64,000 bases of DNA. Source: Streptomyces cynarae. GTDB taxonomy: Bacteria; Actinomycetota; Actinomycetes; Streptomycetales; Streptomycetaceae. Below are positions 6,582 through 64,000 of this stretch, piece after piece (position 1 is the first letter of the stretch; every line of letters begins with the position of its first letter). Where the stretch lies: assembly GCF_025642135.1 (NCBI RefSeq), contig NZ_CP106793.1:7532001-7596000 (forward strand), given 5' to 3'. Below the pieces are notes generated by a model. It ran no database searches and was not told the origin of the DNA. It saw nothing but the letters and a program-made list of their open reading frames with translations. The position numbers and the translations under genes are program-made.

Positions 6582-9266
6582 ATGACGGAGGCACGGCCCG
6601 GCGCGGCCGCCTCGGCTTCCCTGTGGGAACGCGACGCGGAGCTGACCGTCATCACCGAGGCGGTCGACGCGCTCTGCGACGACGCGTCGCCCTCGGAGTC
6701 GGGGAGTCTGCTGGTGTTCAGCGGGGAGGCCGGCATCGGCAAGACCGCCCTCCTCGCCGAGACACGCCGCATCGCGGACGAGCGCGGCTGCGCGGTCTGG
6801 TGGGCGCGCGGCGGCGAGACCGTCACGTCCGTGCCCTTCAACGTCGTACGACAACTGCTCCAGCCCGTGCTCCTGTCCCTGATGCCTCAGGAGGCGCGGG
6901 AGTACCTGGGCGACTGGTACGAGGTCGCGGGCCCCGCCCTCGGCATAGCGGACCCCGGAGAGCGGCAGGCCGACCCGCAGGGCGTGTGCGACGGACTGGT
7001 CGAGGTCGTCTCCCGGCTCGCCCGGCGGGAGTGGCCGCTGGTCCTGATCGTCGACGACGCCCACTGGGCCGACCAGGAGACCCTGCACTGGCTGGCCGCC
7101 TGCTGCGAACGCCTCGCCGACCTGCGCGTGCTCCTCGTGGTGGCCCTGCGCCCCGGCGAGGCGTCCGGCGAGGGCGCCCGGCACCTCGACGCGATCACCG
7201 CGGCCGCCCGTCGCCCGGTCAGCACCCTCAGCGCGCTCACCCCCGAGGCGACCGCCGGACTCACCCGGGCCACCGTCGGCGCGCACGCCGACGCCCCGTT
7301 CTGCCGCGAGGTGTGGGCCGTGACCGGCGGCAACCCGTACGAGACCGTGGAACTGCTCGCCAAGGTGCAGGACAGCCGGCTCGACCCGGTCGAGGCCTCG
7401 TGCGCCGAGCTGCGCGACCTGAACCGCTCGGCCCGCGGCAACGGCCTCGTCGCCCGCCTGGAGGGCCTCGGCATCGACGCCACCCGGTTCGCCTGGGCCG
7501 CGGCCATCCTCGGCACCGGCATCACCCTGGACCTGGTGGCCGAGCTCGCCACCATGCGCCCCGAGGAGGCCGCCCGCTGCGCCGAACTGCTCAGCGCGGC
7601 CCGCATCCTGACCGCACCGGGTGTAGCGGGCCGCCGGACGGACGGCGCTGAGCTGGAGTTCGTCCACCCGCTGATCGCCAGTGCCGTCTACCGCTCGATC
7701 CCCGACGGCCTGCGTACCGCCATGCACGGCATCGCCGCGCGGGTCGTCACCGACTCCGGGCTCGGCGCGGCGGCCGCCTCCCGCCACCTCCTCGAAGTCC
7801 ACCCGGACGACGACGAGGAACTGGTCGAGCAGATGCGGGAGGCGGCGCGCGAACACCTCGCCGTCGGCGCCCCCGAAGCGGCCCGCCGCTGCCTGGAGCG
7901 CGCCCTGGCCGAACCGCCGACGCCCGAGGCCCACCCGTACGTGCTCTACGAACTGGGCTGCGCCACGCTGCTGACCGCACCGGCCACCACCATCGACTAC
8001 CTCCAGGCCGCCCTGGCCCTGCCGGGCCTGGAAGGCGACGACCGGGTGGATGCCGTCCACCGCCTGTCCCAGGCCCTGCTGCACAACGACCAGCTCGACG
8101 ACGCCATCCGCACCGTCGACGAGGAGGCCGCCCGTCTGGAACCGGGCCCCTCCCGGATGCGTCTGCAGGCCGTCCACTACATGTGGGAGAGCATCCACGC
8201 GGCCGAGGAGGACTCCCCGGCACGCTCCCGCGAGCTGGCCGAACTCGCCCGCACCTGCACCGGCAGGGACAACTCCGAGCGCGCCCTGCTCATCCTGCGC
8301 GGCTTCGACGCGATGACCCACGGCGAGAACGCCGAAGAGGTCGTGGAAGTGTGCGACCGGGCCCTCGTCAACGGCCGCCTCGCCCCGGGATTCGGCTGGA
8401 CCGACACCGAGTGGGGCATCGAACTGCTGCTCATGCTGGGCAGCGCGTACGCCTACAGCGACCGGCTCGACCGGGCCGAGAGCCTGTTCACCGAGGGCCT
8501 GCGCGCATACGAGTCCGCCGGCTGGAGCGGTGGTCATCTCTCCCTGGCCCACGCCTACGTCGGACTCGCGCACCGCAGGCGCGGTCGGCTCCGGGACGCG
8601 GAGACCTCCCTGCGCGAGTCGCTGCGCCTCGCCGAGCGCGTCGGGCGCGGGCTGCCCCTGTACTGGTCGGCGACCTGCGGCCTCGTCGACACGCTGCTCG
8701 CCCGCGGGCACGTCGAGGAGGCCTGGTCCCTCGCCGAGCGGTACGGTTTCGCACCTCCGTACCCGTCCACGATCGTGCTGCCCGACACCCGTTCCGTGCG
8801 CGGCCGGCTGCTTCTCGCCGTCGGGCGGACCGAGGAGGCCGTGGGCGAGCTGGAGGCCGCGGAGAAGGCGTGCGCGGGGCGCGGCCACAACCCGGTGCTG
8901 GCCCCCTGGGCGGGGGACCTGGCGCGGGCACTGGCCGCCGACGATCCGCGGCGTGCGGCGGATCTGGCCGCTCTTGCCCGCCGGCAGGCCGAGCTCCTGG
9001 GCACCGACACAGCCATCGGCGAGGCCCTGCGGGTGGCTGCCGCGCTGGAGACCGGGCAGCGTGCGGTGCGCCTGGCCGGGCAGGCGGTGGCGTACCTCGA
9101 GGCCTCACCCTGCCAGTACGAACACGCCGCCGCGCTGGTCGAGTACGGGATCGCCACGAGGTCGGTGCCCGAACTCGAACGGGGGCTTTCGCTGGCGGAG
9201 TCCTGCGGGGCGGACGGGTTGGCCGTCCGGGCCCGGGACGCGTTGGAGGCCGTCGGAGCACCGTGA
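6582..9266 (+). CDS. LAL-like AAA ATPase lacking a LuxR DNA-binding domain
   Basis: An 894-residue STAND-type ATPase resembling the LuxR large ATP-binding (LAL) regulators. Walker A is GEAGIGKT at 48-55 and Walker B is LVLIVDDAHWAD around 153-164. A long TPR-like helical region follows (~400-890). LAL proteins usually end in a LuxR helix-turn-helix. This one stops after AVRARDALEAVGAP-type helices, and the downstream DNA encodes no such domain in any frame before the next gene. It may act through a partner, or be a signalling ATPase without direct DNA binding. The ATG has a good site (GGGGAGG, 7 nt before it). It converges on a dehydrogenase gene. Confidence 0.8.
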   Translation: MTEARPGAAASASLWERDAELTVITEAVDALCDDASPSESGSLLVFSGEAGIGKTALLAETRRIADERGCAVWWARGGETVTSVPFNVVRQLLQPVLLSLMPQEAREYLGDWYEVAGPALGIADPGERQADPQGVCDGLVEVVSRLARREWPLVLIVDDAHWADQETLHWLAACCERLADLRVLLVVALRPGEASGEGARHLDAITAAARRPVSTLSALTPEATAGLTRATVGAHADAPFCREVWAVTGGNPYETVELLAKVQDSRLDPVEASCAELRDLNRSARGNGLVARLEGLGIDATRFAWAAAILGTGITLDLVAELATMRPEEAARCAELLSAARILTAPGVAGRRTDGAELEFVHPLIASAVYRSIPDGLRTAMHGIAARVVTDSGLGAAAASRHLLEVHPDDDEELVEQMREAAREHLAVGAPEAARRCLERALAEPPTPEAHPYVLYELGCATLLTAPATTIDYLQAALALPGLEGDDRVDAVHRLSQALLHNDQLDDAIRTVDEEAARLEPGPSRMRLQAVHYMWESIHAAEEDSPARSRELAELARTCTGRDNSERALLILRGFDAMTHGENAEEVVEVCDRALVNGRLAPGFGWTDTEWGIELLLMLGSAYAYSDRLDRAESLFTEGLRAYESAGWSGGHLSLAHAYVGLAHRRRGRLRDAETSLRESLRLAERVGRGLPLYWSATCGLVDTLLARGHVEEAWSLAERYGFAPPYPSTIVLPDTRSVRGRLLLAVGRTEEAVGELEAAEKACAGRGHNPVLAPWAGDLARALAADDPRRAADLAALARRQAELLGTDTAIGEALRVAAALETGQRAVRLAGQAVAYLEASPCQYEHAAALVEYGIATRSVPELERGLSLAESCGADGLAVRARDALEAVGAP

Positions 9267-56269: not shown

Positions 56270-57250
56270 TCAGTCGTGACGTGCCTCCGGGTGGTGCAGC
56301 AGCCACCCCTGCCAGGCCGACTCCACCATGTCGCGCACCCCGCGCTGGGCCCTCCAGCCCAGCTCCCGCTCGGCGAGCGCGGACGACGCGACCGCGCGGG
56401 GCGCGTCCCCGGGGCGGCGCGGCTCGACGACCGCGGGCGTGCCGTCACCGGTCACCTCGCCGATGAGCGTGACGAGCTCCCGTACCGAGACGCCCTCGCC
56501 ACGGCCGACGTTGACCGTCAGGTCGCCCGTCGCGCCCCCGGCCAGCCGCCGGGCCGCAGCGAGGTGCGCCTCGGCGAGGTCGGCGACGTGGATGTAGTCG
56601 CGGACACAGGTGCCGTCCGGTGTCGGATAGTCGTCGCCGAAGATCCGCGGGGCCTCGCCGCGGGTCAGCCGGTCGAAGACCATGGGCACGACGTTGAACA
56701 CGCCCGTGTCGGCCAGCTCCGGCGCCGCCGCGCCCGCCACGTTGAAGTAGCGCAGACACACCGTCGCCATGCCGTGCGCCCGGCCCGCCGCCCGCACCAG
56801 CCACTCGCCCGCGAGCTTCGTCTCGCCGTACGGGCTCATCGGGGTGCAGGGGGTGTCCTCCGTGATGAGGTCCACATCCGGGTCGCCGTACACGGCCGCG
56901 GACGACGAGAACAGAAACCGCCTGATCCCGGCCTCCGCGACCGCGTCCAGCAGCGTGGCGAGACCGCCCAGGTTCTCCCGGTAGTAGTGCGTCGGCCGCT
57001 CCACGGACTCGCCGACCTGCTTGCGCGCCGCGAGGTGCACCACACCGGTCACCTCGTGCTCGGCCAGGACACTCTTGAGCAGCTCGCCGTCCAGCGCGGA
57101 GCCCCGCACCAGTGGAACGCCCTCCGGAAGCCGGGAGCGAACGCCGGCCGAGAGGTCGTCCAGGACCAGGACGCGCTCACCCTCGGCGACCATCGCCCGC
57201 GCCACATGGGCTCCGATGTACCCGGCTCCGCCGGTGATCAGCCATGTCAT
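56270..57250 (-). CDS. galE: UDP-glucose 4-epimerase
   Basis: A 326-residue extended SDR. GGAGYIGAH at 7-15 binds NAD; SSSAAVYG and YGETKLAGEW hold the Ser/Tyr/Lys catalytic group; FNVAGA and RDYIHVADLAEAHL follow. It interconverts UDP-glucose and UDP-galactose, or N-acetyl forms. It is divergent from the envelope cluster starting at 57542 and could supply UDP-galactose to it, but this is inference. ATG at 57250. Confidence 0.92.
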   Translation of the reverse strand: MTWLITGGAGYIGAHVARAMVAEGERVLVLDDLSAGVRSRLPEGVPLVRGSALDGELLKSVLAEHEVTGVVHLAARKQVGESVERPTHYYRENLGGLATLLDAVAEAGIRRFLFSSSAAVYGDPDVDLITEDTPCTPMSPYGETKLAGEWLVRAAGRAHGMATVCLRYFNVAGAAAPELADTGVFNVVPMVFDRLTRGEAPRIFGDDYPTPDGTCVRDYIHVADLAEAHLAAARRLAGGATGDLTVNVGRGEGVSVRELVTLIGEVTGDGTPAVVEPRRPGDAPRAVASSALAERELGWRAQRGVRDMVESAWQGWLLHHPEARHD

Positions 57251-57541: not shown

Positions 57542-59356
57542 CTGTCGACCGCCATCCTCACCGGACAGCCGGTCCCCGGATCGTCGCTCGAGGGCGATCT
57601 GCGGTCCCTCGGCTTCGACGTGCGGGTCGCCACCGGCACCGGTGACGCCGAGGCCCTCCTCGCCGCCGTGCCGGCGGGCCAGCGGGTCGCGATCGTCGAC
57701 GCCCGCTTCGTGGGGCATCTGCACGCCCTGCGCCTCGGTCTGACCGATCCCCGCTTCCCGGCCGCCGCCGTGCCCGGTGCCGTCACCGCCCAGCCCGCCG
57801 CCCGCCCGGCCCTGACCCGTGCTCTGGCCCGCGAGAACTCCGCCACGGCCGGCGGTGCGGCCGTGGTCACCGACAACCTCGCCGAGCGCATCACCGCCGC
57901 CCTCGACGCCGACGGCATCCCGGTCCACCGCCCCGAACTCGGCACCCTGGTCGCCGCCGTCCCCACCGACCCGCAGTCCCGCAACGAGGCCCGGCAGGCG
58001 GTCGCCGCCGTCGACGACGAGGCCGTCCGGCTGCGCAGCGCCGTCAAGGCCCGCGACGGCTTCTTCACCACCCACTTCATCAGCCCGTACTCGCGCTACA
58101 TCGCGCGCTGGTGCGCCCGCCGCGGGCTGACCCCCAACCAGGTCACCACCGCCTCGCTGGTCACCGCCCTCATCGCGGCGGCCGCCGCGGCCACCGGCAC
58201 CCGCGGCGGTTTCGTCGCGGCCGGCGTCCTGCTGATCCTGTCCTTCGTCCTGGACTGCACCGACGGCCAGCTCGCCCGGTACTCCTTGCAGTACTCCACG
58301 CTCGGCGCCTGGCTGGACGCCACGTTCGACCGGGTCAAGGAGTACGCCTACTACGCGGGCCTCGCCCTCGGCGCCGCCCGCGGCGGCGACGACGTGTGGG
58401 CGCTCGCGCTCGGCGCGATGGTCCTGCAGACATGTCGGCACGTGGTCGACTTCGCGTTCAACGAGGCCAACCACGACGCGACCGCGAACACCAGCCCCAC
58501 CGCGGCCCTCTCCGACCGCCTGGACAGCGTCGGCTGGACGGTGTGGGTGCGCCGGATGATCGTTCTGCCGATCGGGGAGCGCTGGGCGCTGATAGCCGTC
58601 CTGACGGCCGCCGCCACTCCCCGTGTCACCTTCGTGGTGCTGCTCATCGGCTGCGCCTTCGCGGCGACGTACACCACGGCGGGCCGGGTGCTCCGGTCGG
58701 TGACGCGCAAGGCGCGCCGCACCGACCGGGCGGCTCGGGCGCTGGCGGACCTCGCGGACAGCGGGCCGCTCGCCGAGCTGCTGACGCGCGTCGCGCGTCG
58801 GGTGTCCTTGCGGGCACCCGCCTGCACCGCCCTGGTCGGCGGCGCCGTCGTCGTGCTCGCGGCCTCGCTCGCCGGATACGGCAGCTGGTGGCCCGTCCTG
58901 GGCGCCGTCTTCTACGTGCTTCAGTCGCCCCTGGCCCTGGCCCTGGCCCGCCCCCTCAAGGGCCCCCTGGACTGGCTGGTCCCCCCGCTCTTCCGGGCCG
59001 CCGAATACGGCACGGTCCTCGTACTCGCCGCGAAGTCCGGGGTGAACGGAGTGCTGCCGGCGGCTTTCGGCCTGGTGGCGGCCGTCGCCTACCATCACTA
59101 CGACACGGTGTACCGCATCCGCGGCGACGCCGGCGCGCCGCCGCACTGGCTGGTGCGCGCGATCGGGGGGCACGAGGGCCGGACGCTGCTCGTCACGGTT
59201 CTCGCCGCAACTCTCACCGCGGCACAGTTCAAGGTCGCCCTCACGGCCCTCGCCGGGTACGTGGCGCTCGTGGTGCTCGTCGAGAGCATCCGCTTCTGGG
59301 TGGCCGCACACAAGGGCGGCGCACCCGCCGTACACGATGAAGGAGAACCCGCATGA
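57542..59356 (+). CDS. large CDP-alcohol phosphatidyltransferase family protein (CTG start)
   Basis: About 604 residues. The N-terminal ~200 form a soluble domain with an ALTG(Q/P)-type start and no clear known fold (probably DUF5941 or nucleotidyltransferase-like). From ~210 there is a CDP-alcohol phosphotransferase domain with CDP-OH-P motif DCTDGQLARY and later Asp residues (~238-264), in several transmembrane helices; further membrane helices follow to ~590. It likely transfers a phosphoalcohol to a lipid or sugar acceptor. In frame the only codons before GTG 57620 are CTG at 57542, preceded by GGGAG, so CTG seems to be the start. Stop overlaps the next ATG (ATGA). Confidence 0.75.
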   Translation: MSTAILTGQPVPGSSLEGDLRSLGFDVRVATGTGDAEALLAAVPAGQRVAIVDARFVGHLHALRLGLTDPRFPAAAVPGAVTAQPAARPALTRALARENSATAGGAAVVTDNLAERITAALDADGIPVHRPELGTLVAAVPTDPQSRNEARQAVAAVDDEAVRLRSAVKARDGFFTTHFISPYSRYIARWCARRGLTPNQVTTASLVTALIAAAAAATGTRGGFVAAGVLLILSFVLDCTDGQLARYSLQYSTLGAWLDATFDRVKEYAYYAGLALGAARGGDDVWALALGAMVLQTCRHVVDFAFNEANHDATANTSPTAALSDRLDSVGWTVWVRRMIVLPIGERWALIAVLTAAATPRVTFVVLLIGCAFAATYTTAGRVLRSVTRKARRTDRAARALADLADSGPLAELLTRVARRVSLRAPACTALVGGAVVVLAASLAGYGSWWPVLGAVFYVLQSPLALALARPLKGPLDWLVPPLFRAAEYGTVLVLAAKSGVNGVLPAAFGLVAAVAYHHYDTVYRIRGDAGAPPHWLVRAIGGHEGRTLLVTVLAATLTAAQFKVALTALAGYVALVVLVESIRFWVAAHKGGAPAVHDEGEPA

Positions 59357-60105
59357 TCGGCCTCGTGCTGGCGGCCGGCGCCGGACGGCGCCTGCGCCCC
59401 TACACCGACACCCTGCCCAAGGCTCTGGTGCCGGTGGGGCCCGAGGGCGCGGAGGACAGCCTCACGGTCCTCGACCTCACGCTCGGCAACTTCGCCGAGG
59501 TGGGCCTGACCGAGGTCGGCGTCATCGTCGGCTACCGCAAGGAGGCCGTGTACGAGCGCAAGGCGGCCCTCGAGCAGAAGTACGGCCTGAAGCTCACCCT
59601 GATCGACAACGACAAGGCCGAGGAGTGGAACAACGCCTACTCCCTGTGGTGCGGCCGTGACGCCCTCAAGGACGGCGTGATCCTCGCCAACGGCGACACC
59701 GTCCACCCGGTCTCGGTCGAGAAGACCCTGCTCGCCGCCCGCGGCGACGGCAAGAAGATCATCCTCGCCCTCGACACGGTCAAGAAGCTCGCCGACGAGG
59801 AGATGAAGGTCGTCGTCGACCCCGCCAAGGGCGTCCAGAAGATCACCAAGCTGATGGACCCGGCCGAGGCGACCGGCGAGTACATCGGCGTCACCCTCAT
59901 CGAGGGCGAGGCCGCCGAGGAGCTGGCCGACGCCCTCAAGGCCACCTTCGAGCGCGACCCGCAGCTGTACTACGAGGACGGCTACCAGGAGCTCGTCAAC
60001 CGCGGCTTCAAGATCGACGTGGCGCCGATCGGCGACGTCCCGTGGGTCGAGATCGACAACCACGACGACCTGGCCCGGGGGCGGGAGATCGCGTGCCGGT
60101 ACTGA
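59353..60105 (+). CDS. nucleotidyltransferase, phosphocholine cytidylyltransferase-like
   Basis: A 250-residue nucleotidyltransferase: LVLAAGAGRRLRPYTDTLPK at the N-terminus is the NTP-binding loop with Lys, and LANGDTV (~114-120) the metal-binding Asp. It probably activates an alcohol or sugar phosphate with CTP (or another NTP), giving the substrate of the adjacent CDP-alcohol transferases. It starts at ATGA overlapping the previous stop and is followed by an overlapping dehydrogenase gene. Confidence 0.85.
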   Translation: MIGLVLAAGAGRRLRPYTDTLPKALVPVGPEGAEDSLTVLDLTLGNFAEVGLTEVGVIVGYRKEAVYERKAALEQKYGLKLTLIDNDKAEEWNNAYSLWCGRDALKDGVILANGDTVHPVSVEKTLLAARGDGKKIILALDTVKKLADEEMKVVVDPAKGVQKITKLMDPAEATGEYIGVTLIEGEAAEELADALKATFERDPQLYYEDGYQELVNRGFKIDVAPIGDVPWVEIDNHDDLARGREIACRY

Positions 60106-61154
60106 CGAGGCTCATCCCCTCGCCGGTCGTCGTGGACATCCGTGCGGGTGCCCTCGACGACCTGGCGGGCGTGCTCGCGGACGAGCGCATCTCCCACTCG
60201 GGCAAGCTCGCCGTCGCGGTCAGCGACGGCTCCGGCGCCCGGCTGCGGGAGCGGCTCTCCCCCAGCCTGCCCGGTGCCACCTGGTACGAGGTCGGCGGCG
60301 GCACCCTCGACGACGCGGTCCGGCTGGCCGGTGAGATGAAGTCCGGCCACTACGACGCGCTCGTGGGGCTGGGCGGAGGCAAGATCATCGACTGCGCCAA
60401 GTTCGCCGCGGCGCGCGTCGGCCTGCCCCTGGTCGCCGTGCCCACGAACCTCGCGCACGACGGCCTGTGCTCCCCGGTCGCCACCCTCGACAACGACGCG
60501 GGCCGCGGCTCGTACGGAGTGCCGAACCCGATCGCGGTCGTCATCGACCTCAACGTGATCCGCGAGGCACCCGTCCGTTTCGTGCGCTCCGGTATCGGCG
60601 ACGCCATCTCCAACATCTCCGCGGTCGCGGACTGGGAGCTGGCCAACCGTGTCAACGGCGAGAAGATCGACGGCCTCGCCGCGGCCATGGCCCGGCAGGC
60701 CGGCGAGGCCGTGCTGCGCCACCCCGGAGGGATCGGCGACAACGACTTCCTCCAGATCCTCGCCGAGGCGCTGGTCCTCAGCGGCATCGCCATGTCCGTG
60801 TCGGGCGACTCCCGCCCCTCCTCCGGGGCCTGCCACGAGATCAACCACGGCTTCGACCTGCTGTTCCCCAAGCGCGCGGCCGCCCATGGCGAGCAGTGCG
60901 GCCTCGGTGCCGCCTTCGCGATGTACCTGCGCGGGGCGCACGAGGAGTCGGCGTTCATGGCCCAGGTGCTGCGCCGGCACGGGCTGCCCGTGCTGCCGCA
61001 GGAGATCGGCTTCACGGTGGACGAGTTCGTCCGGGTCGTGGAGTACGCCCCGCAGACCCGGCCCGGCCGCTACACGATCCTCGAACACCTCGACCTGAAG
61101 CCCGAACAGATCAAGGACACCTACGCCGACTATGTCAAGGCCATCGGTAGCTGA
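60093..61154 (+). CDS. glycerol-1-phosphate dehydrogenase-like enzyme
   Basis: A 353-residue iron-containing alcohol dehydrogenase-fold enzyme of the AraM/EgsA group. AHDGLCSP (~119-126), HEINHGFD and AHGEQCG are the metal-ligand segments of sn-glycerol-1-phosphate dehydrogenases; GGGKIIDCAKFAA binds NAD(P). It would reduce dihydroxyacetone phosphate to sn-glycerol 1-phosphate, a stereoisomer unusual in bacteria, though other keto-phosphates are possible. GTG at 60093 after GGGAG overlaps the previous gene by 13 bp; its end overlaps the next gene by 23 bp. Confidence 0.85.
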   Translation: MPVLTRLIPSPVVVDIRAGALDDLAGVLADERISHSGKLAVAVSDGSGARLRERLSPSLPGATWYEVGGGTLDDAVRLAGEMKSGHYDALVGLGGGKIIDCAKFAAARVGLPLVAVPTNLAHDGLCSPVATLDNDAGRGSYGVPNPIAVVIDLNVIREAPVRFVRSGIGDAISNISAVADWELANRVNGEKIDGLAAAMARQAGEAVLRHPGGIGDNDFLQILAEALVLSGIAMSVSGDSRPSSGACHEINHGFDLLFPKRAAAHGEQCGLGAAFAMYLRGAHEESAFMAQVLRRHGLPVLPQEIGFTVDEFVRVVEYAPQTRPGRYTILEHLDLKPEQIKDTYADYVKAIGS

Positions 61155-61911
61155 ACTCCGGCCCGTCGTGCACCCCGCAGGGGTGAAGGACCGGCGCAGC
61201 GGTGAGCACTGGATGGGACGCCTCTACATGCGAGAGGTGTCCCTGCGGGTCGACCGCTACCTGGTCAACACCAGGGTCACACCCAACCAGCTCACGTACC
61301 TGATGACCGTCTTCGGCGTGCTCGCGGCCCCGGCACTGCTCGTGCCGGGGATCTGGGGCGCAGTGCTCGGCGTGGTGTGCGTCCAGCTGTACCTGCTGCT
61401 GGACTGCGTCGACGGGGAGATCGCGCGCTGGAAGAAGCAGTACTCGCTGGGCGGGGTGTACCTGGACCGAGTCGGTGCCTACCTCACCGATGCCGCCGTG
61501 CTCGTCGGCTTCGGTCTGCGCGCCGCCGACCTGTGGGGCAGCGGCCGTATCGACTGGCTGTGGGCCTTCCTCGGGACGCTGGCCGCGCTCGGTGCCATCC
61601 TGATCAAGGCCGAGACCGACCTGGTCGGCGTGGCCCGGCACCAGGGCGGGCTGCCGCCGGTGAAGGAGGCCGCCTCGGAGATGCGCTCCTCCGGCATGGC
61701 CCTGGCCCGCAGGGCCGCCGCCGCGCTCAAGTTCCACCGGCTGATCCTGGGCATCGAGGCGTCCCTGCTGATCCTGGTCCTGGCGATCGTGGACACGGTG
61801 CGGGGCGACCTGTTCTTCGAGCGGCTCGGCGTGGCCGTGCTGGCCGGCATCGCGCTGCTCCAGACGGTGCTCCACCTCGTGTCCATCCTGGCCTCCAGCA
61901 GGCTGAAGTGA
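61132..61911 (+). CDS. CDP-alcohol phosphatidyltransferase
   Basis: A 259-residue membrane enzyme with the complete CDP-OH-P motif: DCVDGEIARWKKQYSLGG followed by YLDRVGAYLTD (~90-116), and about six transmembrane helices. It transfers an alcohol phosphate from CDP to an acceptor. It differs from the larger transferase at 57542, so two transfers or two acceptors are likely. ATG at 61132, overlapping the dehydrogenase end; its stop overlaps the next gene's GTG (GTGA). Confidence 0.88.
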   Translation: MSRPSVAELRPVVHPAGVKDRRSGEHWMGRLYMREVSLRVDRYLVNTRVTPNQLTYLMTVFGVLAAPALLVPGIWGAVLGVVCVQLYLLLDCVDGEIARWKKQYSLGGVYLDRVGAYLTDAAVLVGFGLRAADLWGSGRIDWLWAFLGTLAALGAILIKAETDLVGVARHQGGLPPVKEAASEMRSSGMALARRAAAALKFHRLILGIEASLLILVLAIVDTVRGDLFFERLGVAVLAGIALLQTVLHLVSILASSRLK

Positions 61912-62822
61912 GCGGCGCCGCACGCGGCGGTGCCGCCCCGGGCGGCGCCCTGAAGGTCGGGGCCGTCATCATCACGATGGGCAACCGCCCGGCCGAGCTC
62001 CGCGGCCTCCTCGACTCGGTGGCCAAGCAGGACGGCGACCCCGTCGAGGTGGTCGTGGTCGGCAACGGCTCCCCGGTCCCGGACGTCCCCGACGGCGTTC
62101 GCACGATCGAGCTGCCCGAGAACCTCGGCATCCCCGGCGGCCGCAACGTCGGCATCGAGGCCTTCGGCCCCGGCGGCACCGACGCCGACGTGCTGCTCTT
62201 CCTCGACGACGACGGCCTGCTCGCCCGCACCGACACCGCCGAGCTGTGCCGCGAGGCCTTCGCCGCGGACCCCCGGCTCGGCATCATCAGCTTCCGCATC
62301 GCCGACCCCGACACAGGCGAGACCCAGCGCCGCCACGTGCCCCGGCTGCGCGCCTCCGACCCGATGCGCTCCTCGCGGGTGACCACCTTCCTGGGCGGCG
62401 CCAACGCCGTCCGCACGAAGGTCTTCGCCGAGGTCGGCGGCCTGCCGGACGAGTTCTTCTACGCCCATGAGGAGACCGACCTGGCCTGGCGGGCCCTGGA
62501 CGCGGGCTGGATGATCGACTACCGGTCGGACATGGTGCTGTACCACCCCACGACCGCGCCCTCCCGGCACGCGGTCTACCACCGGATGGTCGCCCGCAAC
62601 CGGGTGTGGCTCGCCCGCCGCAACCTGCCCGCCGTCCTCGTCCCGGTGTACTTGGGCGTCTGGATGCTCCTGACGCTGCTGCGCCGCCCCTCGCGGGCCG
62701 CCCTGAGGGCCTGGTTCGGCGGCTTCCGGGAGGGCTGGACGACCCCCTGCGGGCCCCGCCGGCCCATGCGGTGGCGTACGGTCTGGCGGCTCACCCGACT
62801 GGGCCGACCCCCGGTGATCTGA
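61908..62822 (+). CDS. family 2 glycosyltransferase
   Basis: A 304-residue GT-A enzyme: VVVVGNGSP with ENLGIPGGRNVGIE, then the nucleotide-sugar DxD motif in LFLDDDGLLA and EETDLAWRALD near 190-200. It would add a sugar to a lipid or polymer intermediate. GTG at 61908 overlaps the previous stop by four bases. A hairpin separates it from the exporter genes. Confidence 0.88.
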   Translation: MSGAARGGAAPGGALKVGAVIITMGNRPAELRGLLDSVAKQDGDPVEVVVVGNGSPVPDVPDGVRTIELPENLGIPGGRNVGIEAFGPGGTDADVLLFLDDDGLLARTDTAELCREAFAADPRLGIISFRIADPDTGETQRRHVPRLRASDPMRSSRVTTFLGGANAVRTKVFAEVGGLPDEFFYAHEETDLAWRALDAGWMIDYRSDMVLYHPTTAPSRHAVYHRMVARNRVWLARRNLPAVLVPVYLGVWMLLTLLRRPSRAALRAWFGGFREGWTTPCGPRRPMRWRTVWRLTRLGRPPVI

Positions 62823-62851
62823 CAAGCTCGGTACTCGGAAGCCAGCGGGCG

Positions 62852-62890
62852 GGGGCCCACATCGCGGCTCCACCCGAGCGCGGGCCCCCC
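62852..62890. terminator. hairpin between glycosyltransferase and exporter genes
   Basis: GGGGGCCC (62852-62859) and GGGCCCCC (62883-62890) form an 8-bp stem in the 100-bp gap. It may be a partial terminator separating biosynthesis from export genes or a leader structure. Confidence 0.45.
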
Positions 62891-62922
62891 GCGCATCCCG
62901 AAAACGGAGAGTTTGCCAACCT

Positions 62923-63852
62923 GTGAGTGAGACAACGCATGACGGGCGCGTCGCGGTGACCGACGGCCCGTCCGCCGATGGCGGGCTGAGCCCGGCCGAG
63001 CTGGCCGCCAAGTACGGCCTCTCGGTGAGCGGTGCCCGGCCCGGACTCGTCCGCTACGTCCGCCAGCTGTGGGGACGGCGCCACTTCATCCTCGCCTTCT
63101 CGCAGGCGAAGCTCACCGCCCAGTACAGCCAGGCCAAGCTCGGCCAGCTGTGGCAGGTCGCCACCCCGCTGCTGAACGCGCTCGTGTACTACTTCATCTT
63201 CGGGCTGATCCTGAAGGCCAGCCGGGGCATGTCGCACGGGACGTACATCCCGTTCCTGGTGACCGGCGTGTTCGTGTTCACCTTCACCCAGAGCTCGATC
63301 ATGGCGGGCGTCCGGGCGATCTCCGGCAACCTGGGCCTGGTCCGGGCCCTGCACTTCCCGCGCGCCTCGCTGCCCATCTCCTTCGCGCTGCAGCAGCTCC
63401 AGCAGCTGCTCTTCTCGATGATCGTGCTGTTCGCCGTCGCCATCGGGTTCGGCAGCTACCCGAGGCTGTCCTGGCTGCTGATCATCCCGGTCCTGGTGCT
63501 GCAGTTCCTCTTCAACACCGGCCTGTCCCTGATCGTGGCGCGGATGGGTGCCAAGACCCCGGACCTCGCGCAGCTGATGCCCTTCATCCTGCGCACGTGG
63601 ATGTACGCCTCCGGTGTCATGTTCTCCATCCACACCATGCTCGCCGGCCGCCCGGAATGGGTCGTCCGCGCGCTGCAGGCGAATCCGGCCGCCGTCTACA
63701 TGGACCTGATGCGCTTCGCGCTCATCAAGAACTACGGCGCCGCCAACCTCCCGCCGCACGTGTGGGCCATCGCCTTGTTCTGGGCCGTCGTCGTCTTCGC
63801 CGGCGGGTTCGTGTACTTCTGGAAGGCGGAGGAGCGGTACGGCCGTGGCTGA
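62923..63852 (+). CDS. ABC-2 type exporter permease (Wzm/TagG-like)
   Basis: A 309-residue membrane protein with six transmembrane helices typical of ABC-2 polysaccharide/teichoic acid exporters (NALVYYFIFGLILKA and similar). A ~55-residue soluble N-terminus is present. It pairs with the ATPase starting at 63845, whose start overlaps by 8 bases. Function: export of a lipid-linked glycopolymer made by the genes upstream (inferred). GTG at 62923. Confidence 0.87.
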   Translation: MSETTHDGRVAVTDGPSADGGLSPAELAAKYGLSVSGARPGLVRYVRQLWGRRHFILAFSQAKLTAQYSQAKLGQLWQVATPLLNALVYYFIFGLILKASRGMSHGTYIPFLVTGVFVFTFTQSSIMAGVRAISGNLGLVRALHFPRASLPISFALQQLQQLLFSMIVLFAVAIGFGSYPRLSWLLIIPVLVLQFLFNTGLSLIVARMGAKTPDLAQLMPFILRTWMYASGVMFSIHTMLAGRPEWVVRALQANPAAVYMDLMRFALIKNYGAANLPPHVWAIALFWAVVVFAGGFVYFWKAEERYGRG

Positions 63853-64000
63853 GCAGAACACCGGGGCCAGGGTGCCCACCGTCATCGCGGACGAGCTGCA
63901 CATCGTCTACCGCGTCAACGGTGCCGGGGCCGGCAAGGGCAGCGCGACCGCCGCTCTGAGCCGCATCCTCAAGCGGGGCTCCGACGACGCGGCGCGCGGT
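63845..64000 (+). CDS. ABC exporter ATPase (Wzt/TagH-like), cut by window end
   Basis: Only 52 codons are seen (VAEQNTGARVPTVIADELHI at the start), before any Walker motif. The start overlaps the permease by eight bases and continues beyond 64000. The context indicates the ATPase of the exporter. Confidence 0.75.
   Translation, partial: MAEQNTGARVPTVIADELHIVYRVNGAGAGKGSATAALSRILKRGSDDAARG

What the first reader, a model, noticed from the sequence alone, without database searches (positions are those of the whole stretch)
57542..64000. Envelope cluster with two CDP-alcohol transferases, a cytidylyltransferase-like enzyme and a G1P-dehydrogenase-like enzyme
Seven genes run in one direction and mostly overlap: CDP-alcohol transferase, nucleotidyltransferase, G1P-dehydrogenase-like enzyme, second CDP-alcohol transferase, GT2, ABC-2 permease and ATPase. 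Gene content suggests DHAP reduction to sn-glycerol 1-phosphate (or a related alcohol phosphate), CTP activation, transfer to two acceptors, glycosylation and export. Archaeal-type G1P in a bacterial phosphodiester polymer or glycolipid would be novel. Known teichoic-acid pathways use glycerol 3-phosphate. Alternative: the dehydrogenase acts on another keto-phosphate and the product is a known Streptomyces teichoic acid.
Basis: partly seen in the sequence, partly recalled or inferred. Interest (0 to 1): 0.75.

Follow-up and report, generated by a model that had tools for sequence, protein, structure and literature searches.

The report
Mirror-image glycerol-phosphate envelope operon in Streptomyces
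A gene cluster conserved in Streptomyces looks able to make an activated form of the archaeal mirror-image glycerol phosphate and attach it to a cell-surface molecule, a route that published work had thought unlikely in bacteria.

Summary
In detail: seven co-directional genes, from window 57542 past its edge. The dehydrogenase falls with G1P dehydrogenases, away from glycerol dehydrogenase controls, and its metal-ligand positions align. The nucleotidyltransferase's best solved relatives are mostly CTP enzymes making CDP-alcohols or CDP-phosphonates. AF2299, reported with CDP-glycerol as donor (PMC4634129), is the best solved relative of both CDP-alcohol transferases by sequence.

The nucleotidyltransferase gene lies directly upstream of the dehydrogenase gene in 83 of 89 evaluable loci, three named non-actinobacterial phyla included; 58 of the 83 also have a CDP-alcohol transferase nearby. 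The dehydrogenase was found in 150 of 150 genomes of the genus.

Best reading: DHAP to G1P to CDP-1-glycerol to an envelope acceptor, then export. The second transferase lacks the last signature Asp in 61 of 61 orthologues. Exporter and galE paralogues sit in the genome's TagF cluster.

Correction: bacterial Gro1P polymers are already known (lipoteichoic acid, from phosphatidylglycerol; PMC7086022). The CDP-1-glycerol route would be new. Every catalytic step is inferred.

The parts
57542..59356 (+). CDP-alcohol phosphotransferase 1: N-terminal cytidylyltransferase-like fold (residues 1-160), CDP-alcohol transferase domain (about 166-390) and DUF5941 membrane domain (395-604)
59353..60105 (+). 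Nucleotidyltransferase, inferred CTP:sn-glycerol-1-phosphate cytidylyltransferase
   Evidence: Pfam NTP_transferase 43 bits; the five best solved relatives by profile are 6pd1 PntC, 1jyk LicC, 4jd0 (unnamed nucleotidyl transferase) and the two A. fulgidus IPCT entries 2xme and 4mnd; A8, G9, R13, K23, N86, N94, S97, N113, D115, E233 and D235 are invariant in 24 relatives
60093..61154 (+). sn-Glycerol-1-phosphate dehydrogenase-like enzyme (353 aa, GTG start)
   Evidence: NCBIfam PRK00843 G1PDH 240.6 bits (cut-off 413, not reached) against glycerol dehydrogenase 92.8; metal-ligand positions D170, H248, H265 align with 4rgq chain positions 181, 259, 280 (which numbers from codon 60099, two lower); parted from four GldA controls at 100/100; in 150 of 150 genomes of the genus sampled
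61132..61911 (+). CDP-alcohol phosphotransferase 2, motif variant (last Asp replaced by Ala; DRVGA)
   Evidence: Pfam CDP-OH_P_transf 33 bits; best solved relative AF2299 by single sequence and by a profile that includes it; last motif Asp is Ala in 34 and His in 27 of 61 non-duplicate orthologues, Asp in 0; model mean pLDDT 88
61974..62822 (+). GT2 glycosyltransferase (start uncertain, about 61950-61974)
   Evidence: Pfam Glycos_transf_2 40 bits; the codon at 61956 is GTC, so the start was not settled
62923..63852 (+). ABC-2 permease, Wzm/TagG type
   Evidence: Pfam ABC2_membrane 48 bits; 70% identical paralogue in the TagF cluster of the same genome
63845..64000 (+). First 156 bases of the ABC ATPase (TagH/Wzt type); the complete gene is L008:8346-9134
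   Evidence: 84% identical paralogue in the TagF cluster
56270..57250 (-). Flanking galE-type epimerase, divergent; not claimed as part of the operon
   Evidence: NCBIfam galE 320 bits over cut-off 262.3; 70% identical paralogue in the TagF cluster

Best explanation
The cluster is a CDP-1-glycerol module of the cell envelope. The dehydrogenase reduces DHAP to sn-glycerol-1-phosphate (inferred from homology and metal-ligand positions). The neighbouring nucleotidyltransferase makes CDP-1-glycerol from it and CTP (inferred from family and conserved pairing). The first CDP-alcohol transferase, an AF2299-like core extended by DUF5941 into what models as a cholinephosphotransferase-like membrane fold, passes glycerol-1-phosphate to a membrane-lipid or lipid-linked acceptor (inferred from modelled architecture). 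The second, motif-variant transferase does a further or partner step (least certain), the GT2 adds sugar, and the Wzm/Wzt or TagGH-type ABC transporter exports the product (inferred). The most likely product is a phosphoglycerol-bearing glycolipid or a lipoteichoic or teichoic acid precursor.
Against: No enzyme activity was tested. The dehydrogenase falls short of the NCBIfam G1PDH equivalog cut-off (240.6 against 413), though the Geoglobus enzyme does too (371.8). Its best single PDB match, 3ce9, is deposited as a glycerol dehydrogenase. Six of 89 loci lack the adjacent nucleotidyltransferase: L043, L049 (3.1 kb away), L072, L086, L088, L107. In 25 of the 83 loci with the pair no same-strand CDP-alcohol transferase lies within 6 kb. 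The 89 are not independent: 41 are Streptomycetaceae and only six are not Actinomycetota (and record titles). DUF5941 lies about 15 kb from the dehydrogenase in G108 and about 0.9 Mb away in G204. Transferase 2 lacks a signature residue. The transferase 1 model is partly of low confidence, and Foldseek itself puts the cholinephosphotransferases at ranks 19-22 with E 0.019-0.16.
Confidence: 0.57

Rival explanations
1. The module supplies CDP-glycerol to the genome's TagF-type polymerases, and the local CDP-alcohol transferases only make a primer, linker or cap of an otherwise conventional Streptomyces teichoic or lipoteichoic acid. This overlaps with the best explanation and differs in where the main polymer is made.
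For: TagF-family matches at six places, two of them adjacent pieces, so five genes; no TagD over cut-off here or in 150 genomes of the genus, and the one weak hit here is a PfkB/cytidylyltransferase fusion; the TagF cluster has galE, permease and ATPase paralogues 70, 70 and 84% identical to those here and no match to the nucleotidyltransferase profile. PMC3196553 (abstract and passages): Streptomyces lipoteichoic acid exists, clear LtaS orthologues are lacking, and an overlap with wall teichoic acid synthesis is proposed.
Against: 53 of 150 genomes of the genus have weak TagD-like matches of about 60-71 bits that could be divergent glycerol-3-phosphate cytidylyltransferases; this genome has three PF01467 and two PF01128 matches over those broad families' cut-offs, not all examined; TagF-family enzymes may use other donors; the two clusters lie 4 Mb apart.
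Confidence: 0.35
2. The dehydrogenase acts on a different keto-phosphate, and the nucleotidyltransferase activates that alcohol phosphate; the architecture is as proposed but the building block is not glycerol-1-phosphate.
For: The window protein is only 35% identical to the archaeal Geoglobus enzyme and 37-42% to the bacterial non-actinobacterial ones, and below the G1PDH equivalog cut-off. The nearest solved nucleotidyltransferases include choline, inositol and phosphonate enzymes.
Against: Residues of the 'DGxxSP' and 'GxGD...AxxDW' stretches and the metal-ligand positions are shared with solved G1PDHs 4rgq and 5fb3; the nearest solved relative of the transferases binds CDP-glycerol. No phosphonate or inositol-phosphate synthase turned up among the neighbours scanned with Pfam, but no dedicated search was made.
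Confidence: 0.2
3. G1P made here enters membrane lipids, either archaeal-type ether lipid or heterochiral phospholipid through PlsY, and the gene neighbours are incidental.
For: AraM plus PcrB make an ether lipid in B. subtilis, and PMC6431249 lists Streptomyces among genera with all three archaeal-type genes (passages); PlsY accepts both enantiomers (PMC13400652, title and passages).
Against: No PcrB match in this genome, with the control ringing in 7 of 14 genomes; pairing with the nucleotidyltransferase in 83 of 89 loci points to CTP activation.
Confidence: 0.08
4. The product is a soluble glycerophosphodiester such as the glycerophosphoinositol of hyperthermophiles, not an exported envelope molecule.
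For: AF2299 and DIPP synthase, the nearest solved relatives, do not process lipids (PMC4634129); PMC8262930 names archaeal glycerophosphoinositol as needing CDP-1-glycerol.
Against: DUF5941 adds what models as a lipid-acceptor-like half, and the operon carries a GT2 and an ABC-2 exporter.
Confidence: 0.07

Closest known systems
Archaeoglobus AF2299 and the archaeal CDP-1-glycerol route (glycerophosphoinositol)
   Same: AF2299-like fold and motif in transferase 1, cytidylyltransferase-like N-terminal domain, CDP-glycerol as donor of AF2299; an A. fulgidus lysate preferred G1P over G3P for CDP-glycerol formation (PMC8262930)
   Different: Bacterial host, separate nucleotidyltransferase, DUF5941 extension, a second motif-variant transferase, GT2 and ABC exporter. 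That AF2299 itself makes glycerophosphoinositol was not established here
B. subtilis AraM-PcrB
   Same: Bacterial G1P dehydrogenase of the same superfamily
   Different: No PcrB match in this genome; CTP activation instead of prenyl transfer
Wall teichoic acid pathway TagD/TagF/TagGH
   Same: CDP-polyol chemistry and a TagGH-type exporter; close paralogues sit in the genome's TagF cluster
   Different: Nucleotidyltransferase is not TagD; CDP-alcohol transferases instead of TagF; inferred enantiomer is sn-1
Lipoteichoic acid via LtaS
   Same: Gro1P units linked to lipid
   Different: There Gro1P comes from phosphatidylglycerol and is polymerised outside the cell (PMC7086022); no PF00884 match over cut-off here
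Streptomyces syntenic region of PMC13118837 (2026)
   Same: Names the same kinds of genes in passing: CDP-alcohol transferase, GT2, nucleotidyltransferase, araM, tagG, tagH, crtB (one passage)
   Different: The passage associates it with teichoic acid biosynthesis and secondary metabolism; it states no CDP-1-glycerol pathway

Membership tests
G1P dehydrogenase (EgsA/AraM) | Three metal ligands (Asp, His, His) | tested here: met
   D170, H248, H265 align with 4rgq 181, 259, 280; that these are the ligands is recalled
G1P dehydrogenase (EgsA/AraM) | Groups with G1PDH, not glycerol dehydrogenase | tested here: met
   100/100 split, 36 rows; profile scores with four GldA controls. Only one archaeal reference, on a long branch, and no AraM of B. 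subtilis in the tree
G1P dehydrogenase, NCBIfam equivalog NF002022 | Score over the curated cut-off of 413 bits | tested here: not met
   240.6 bits; the archaeal Geoglobus enzyme also misses it, 371.8. Not filed under this equivalog
G1P dehydrogenase (EgsA/AraM) | NAD(P)H-dependent DHAP reduction to sn-glycerol-1-phosphate | not testable with these tools
   needs purified enzyme
CTP:alcohol-phosphate cytidylyltransferase (LicC/IPCT/PntC group) | NTP_transferase domain, closer to CTP:alcohol-phosphate enzymes than to sugar enzymes | tested here: met
   Pfam 43 bits over 21.2; four of the top five PDB sequences by profile, the fifth (4jd0) unnamed; by single sequence LicC is first. The best NCBIfam matches are sugar nucleotidyltransferases, all far under their cut-offs
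CTP:alcohol-phosphate cytidylyltransferase (LicC/IPCT/PntC group) | Use of CTP and G1P | not testable with these tools
   needs assay
CDP-alcohol phosphotransferase (transferase 1) | D-xx-DG-xx-AR-x8-G-xxx-D-xxx-D signature | tested here: met
   DCTDGQLARYSLQYSTLGAWLDATFD
CDP-alcohol phosphotransferase (transferase 2) | Same signature, including the last Asp | tested here: not met
   DCVDGEIARWKKQYSLGGVYLDRVGA; last Asp absent in 61 of 61 orthologues. Pfam domain and modelled fold agree with the family; activity open
Wall teichoic acid synthesis, TagD/TagF type | TagD cytidylyltransferase and TagF polymerase in the cluster | tested here: not met
   neither among the cluster proteins scanned; TagF family elsewhere; no TagD over cut-off in the genome
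Wall teichoic acid synthesis, TagD/TagF type | TagGH-type ABC exporter | tested here: inconclusive
   TagH is the ATPase's best model but under its cut-off, with the galactan exporter ATPase close behind; 70% and 84% identical paralogues sit in the TagF cluster
Bacterial archaeal-type ether lipid (AraM-PcrB) | PcrB/GGGPS present | tested here: not met
   0 matches to PF01884 in the whole genome, control rings in 7 of 14
LtaS lipoteichoic acid | LtaS-type sulfatase-fold synthase | tested here: not met
   two matches, both below the PF00884 cut-off; that LtaS belongs to PF00884 is recalled

The most novel reading that the evidence does not exclude
Streptomyces and relatives build their glycerol-phosphate teichoic and lipoteichoic acids from CDP-sn-glycerol-1-phosphate, the archaeal enantiomer. 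The DUF5941 enzyme is a Kennedy-type lipid primer that stands in for the missing LtaS, and the genome's TagF-type polymerases use the CDP-1-glycerol made here, so their wall polymers are mirror images of the Bacillus ones.
Probability: 0.2. Interest if true: 0.87.

Novelty: new variant of a known kind. Interest (0 to 1): 0.7.

Why it matters
[quoted passage not shown] Here a plausible gene set for making and using it sits in one operon, and its dehydrogenase was found in all 150 genomes of the genus sampled. Streptomyces lipoteichoic acid had no identified synthase in the papers seen, because clear LtaS orthologues are lacking (PMC3196553; PMC8225852). This cluster gives that question a concrete, testable candidate, and it bears on the chirality 'lipid divide' and on the envelope of the main antibiotic producers.

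Tried and rejected
Rejected: (1) glycerol dehydrogenase, by profile scores and tree, although the best single PDB match (3ce9) is deposited under that name. (2) Archaeal-type ether lipid through PcrB: no match in the genome. (3) TagD-type cytidylyltransferase: the nucleotidyltransferase belongs to another Pfam family, and the only TIGR01518 hit in the genome, 38.5 bits, is a PfkB/cytidylyltransferase fusion. (4) A functional link to hopanoids: in the loci of Streptosporangiaceae, Thermomonosporaceae and deeper lineages no hpnC/hpnD match appeared in the stretch held, so the adjacency in Streptomyces looks incidental. (5) Gene fusions of nucleotidyltransferase with dehydrogenase or transferase: none among the ORFs scanned.

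Novelty check: searches listed no paper that, by title, abstract or the passages I opened, proposes a G1PDH to CDP-1-glycerol route in Streptomyces. The library holds open-licence papers only, listings were capped, and most listed papers were not opened, so absence there is not proof.

Confidence of the best explanation was lowered from 0.58 to 0.57 for the deposited name of 3ce9 and the low Foldseek rank of the cholinephosphotransferases.


Full report
WHAT IS THERE. The window lies in a 9.36 Mb genome (G000:C1:7532001-7596000). Its dehydrogenase is closest to Streptomyces proteins in the listing, so I take the unnamed genus to be Streptomyces. Seven genes run on the + strand from 57542 to beyond the window edge: a 604-residue CDP-alcohol transferase with DUF5941, a nucleotidyltransferase, a G1P-dehydrogenase-like enzyme, a second CDP-alcohol transferase, a GT2, an ABC-2 permease and an ABC ATPase that ends 633 bases past the edge. 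Four of six junctions overlap. Upstream and divergent are galE and idi. Downstream are what I read as hopanoid genes (hpnC, hpnD, squalene-hopene cyclase, hpnH), then ispG and dxs; these names come from reading the ORFs and from recall. The likely start of the dehydrogenase is the GTG at 60093, which gives 353 residues, the length of 119 of the 120 relatives listed.

THE DEHYDROGENASE. Against NCBIfam it scores 240.6 bits with the G1P dehydrogenase model and 92.8 with glycerol dehydrogenase. Four glycerol-dehydrogenase-like proteins from other genomes of the phylum do the reverse, 98-117 against 427-528. In a tree of 36 rows the two kinds are parted with 100/100 support, and the one archaeal reference (Geoglobus) falls on the window's side; that reference has a long branch, so its exact place is unsure. 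The best solved relatives are 3ce9 (deposited as glycerol dehydrogenase), then 4rgq, 4rfl and 5fb3 (deposited as G1P dehydrogenases). Residues D170, H248 and H265 align with chain positions 181, 259 and 280 of 4rgq (its printed numbers are two lower because they count from codon 60099). That these three are the metal ligands is recalled, not read here. The protein misses the NCBIfam equivalog cut-off of 413 bits, but so does the Geoglobus enzyme, at 371.8. It is 35% identical to the Geoglobus enzyme and 37-42% to the five bacterial non-actinobacterial ones. Streptomyces and other actinobacterial G1PDH homologues are already in published trees (PMC5059525 and PMC6431249, passages).

THE NUCLEOTIDYLTRANSFERASE. 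A profile of 24 relatives finds, as its five best solved relatives, PntC (6pd1), LicC (1jyk), 4jd0 (named only 'Nucleotidyl transferase') and the two Archaeoglobus inositol-phosphate cytidylyltransferase entries (2xme, 4mnd); sugar nucleotidyltransferases and others follow at lower scores. In NCBIfam its best matches are sugar nucleotidyltransferases, all far under their cut-offs, with the bifunctional inositol-phosphate enzyme fourth. So it is most likely a CTP:alcohol-phosphate cytidylyltransferase. It is not of the TagD family.

LINKAGE. In 296 Actinomycetota genomes, 144 had a match at E of 0.001 or better, but only 32 had E below 1e-45 (counted). Six weaker matches were fetched; four of them were tested and are glycerol dehydrogenases. 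In the remaining 89 the nucleotidyltransferase gene lies directly upstream (within 1 kb, same strand) in 83. The six misses are L043, L049 (3.1 kb away), L072, L086, L088 and L107. Non-actinobacterial loci with the pair are Bacillota (L066), WOR-3 (L067), an unclassified bacterium (L068) and Kerfeldbacteria (L069). These loci were chosen by similarity to the dehydrogenase; one search kept the best 80 of 576. Of the 89, 41 are Streptomycetaceae by title, so they are not independent. A same-strand CDP-alcohol transferase lies within 6 kb in 58 of the 83 and not in 25. DUF5941 was found in 13 of 296 genomes, all 13 among the 14 with a dehydrogenase of E below 1e-90; nine of the 13 are of the window's genus, and in G108 and G204 the two genes are about 15 kb and 0.9 Mb apart. 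The dehydrogenase was found in 150 of 150 genomes of the genus.

SURROUNDINGS ELSEWHERE. Next to the pair lie a polysaccharide flippase-family protein and a glycosyltransferase (L069), MurJ and a glycosyltransferase (L066), UDP-GlcNAc 2-epimerase and a polysaccharide flippase-family protein (L068), WecG/TagA (L049), and, in deep-branching actinobacteria, a bacterial sugar transferase (PF02397), DUF4012 and a PF01663 phosphodiesterase-family protein. Most of these point to envelope polysaccharides; DUF4012 and PF01663 do not by themselves. In the 25 loci without a nearby CDP-alcohol transferase the CDP-compound must be used by something else or by a distant gene.

THE REST OF THE GENOME. There is no PcrB match. 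No PF00884 match reaches its cut-off. TagF-family matches occur at six places, two of them adjacent pieces. No TagD reaches its cut-off, nor in any of 150 genomes of the genus, although 53 of the 150 have weak matches of about 60-71 bits that could be divergent relatives. Broader searches give three PF01467 matches and three PF01128 matches, two of the latter over the cut-off; these were not all identified. The TagF cluster near 3.55 Mb contains galE, permease and ATPase paralogues 70, 70 and 84% identical to those of the window cluster, and no match to the nucleotidyltransferase, dehydrogenase or CDP-alcohol-transferase profiles. This ties the window cluster to teichoic-acid biology and makes its nucleotidyltransferase a leading candidate for CDP-glycerol supply.

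LITERATURE. PMC7086022 (passages): lipoteichoic acid is a polymer of sn-glycerol-1-phosphate derived from phosphatidylglycerol, wall teichoic acid of sn-glycerol-3-phosphate from CDP-glycerol. PMC8262930 (Discussion, part 1): CDP-1-glycerol is likely absent in bacteria, and an A. fulgidus activity prefers G1P. PMC3196553 (abstract and passages): Streptomyces hygroscopicus has polyglycerolphosphate lipoteichoic acid, and actinobacteria lack clear LtaS orthologues. PMC8225852 (passages) repeats that the actinobacterial polymer is thought to be made by an alternative pathway. PMC13400652 (title and passages): PlsY accepts G1P. PMC13118837 (one passage) lists this kind of syntenic region in passing and links it to teichoic acid biosynthesis.

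JUDGEMENT. Shown by sequence: gene content, order, overlaps, conservation, motifs, paralogues. Inferred: every catalytic step. The likeliest pathway is DHAP to G1P to CDP-1-glycerol to a lipid or lipid-linked acceptor, then glycosylation and export. My confidence in that chain is 0.57. It is stronger for the dehydrogenase and cytidylyltransferase class, and weaker for the acceptor and for transferase 2. It is a new variant of CDP-polyol envelope chemistry, not a new kind of chemistry.

Noticed in passing
L165:197-1177, 6883-7797, 7790-8674 (G000 near 3.55 Mb): The TagF cluster of the same genome has galE, ABC permease and ABC ATPase paralogues 70, 70 and 84% identical to those of the window cluster.
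   Followed up: partly
L164:6280-8418 and 8415-8915: One TagF-family gene reads as two adjacent ORFs in different frames; whether it is broken or a sequencing error was not examined.
   Followed up: no
L045-L047, L050-L054, L056-L062 and L069: A PF01663 phosphodiesterase-family protein of about 540 aa lies near the dehydrogenase in 15 non-duplicate deep-branching actinobacterial loci, with a 26-29% identical relative in Kerfeldbacteria; it could be a glycerophosphate-transferring or -cleaving enzyme.
   Followed up: partly
window 61132-61911 and its orthologues (61 in all): In the second CDP-alcohol transferase, Ala at the last-Asp position goes with Asp four residues on (34 of 34) and His with Glu (26 of 27).
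   Followed up: partly
L087:6315-7010, L117:6098-7012, L128:6287-6949: DUF5941 occurs as a separate ORF beside the CDP-alcohol transferase in other actinobacterial families, but is fused in Streptomyces.
   Followed up: partly
G298, G314, G362, G372, G382, G391, G399, G404, G406, G419, G434: Eleven of 150 genomes of the genus show two matches to the dehydrogenase at E of 1e-40 or better; second copies or assembly pieces were not told apart.
   Followed up: no
L008:9465-18001 and L009:18-3152: Genes read as hopanoid biosynthesis, ispG and dxs follow the cluster directly (names read from the ORFs and recalled).
   Followed up: no
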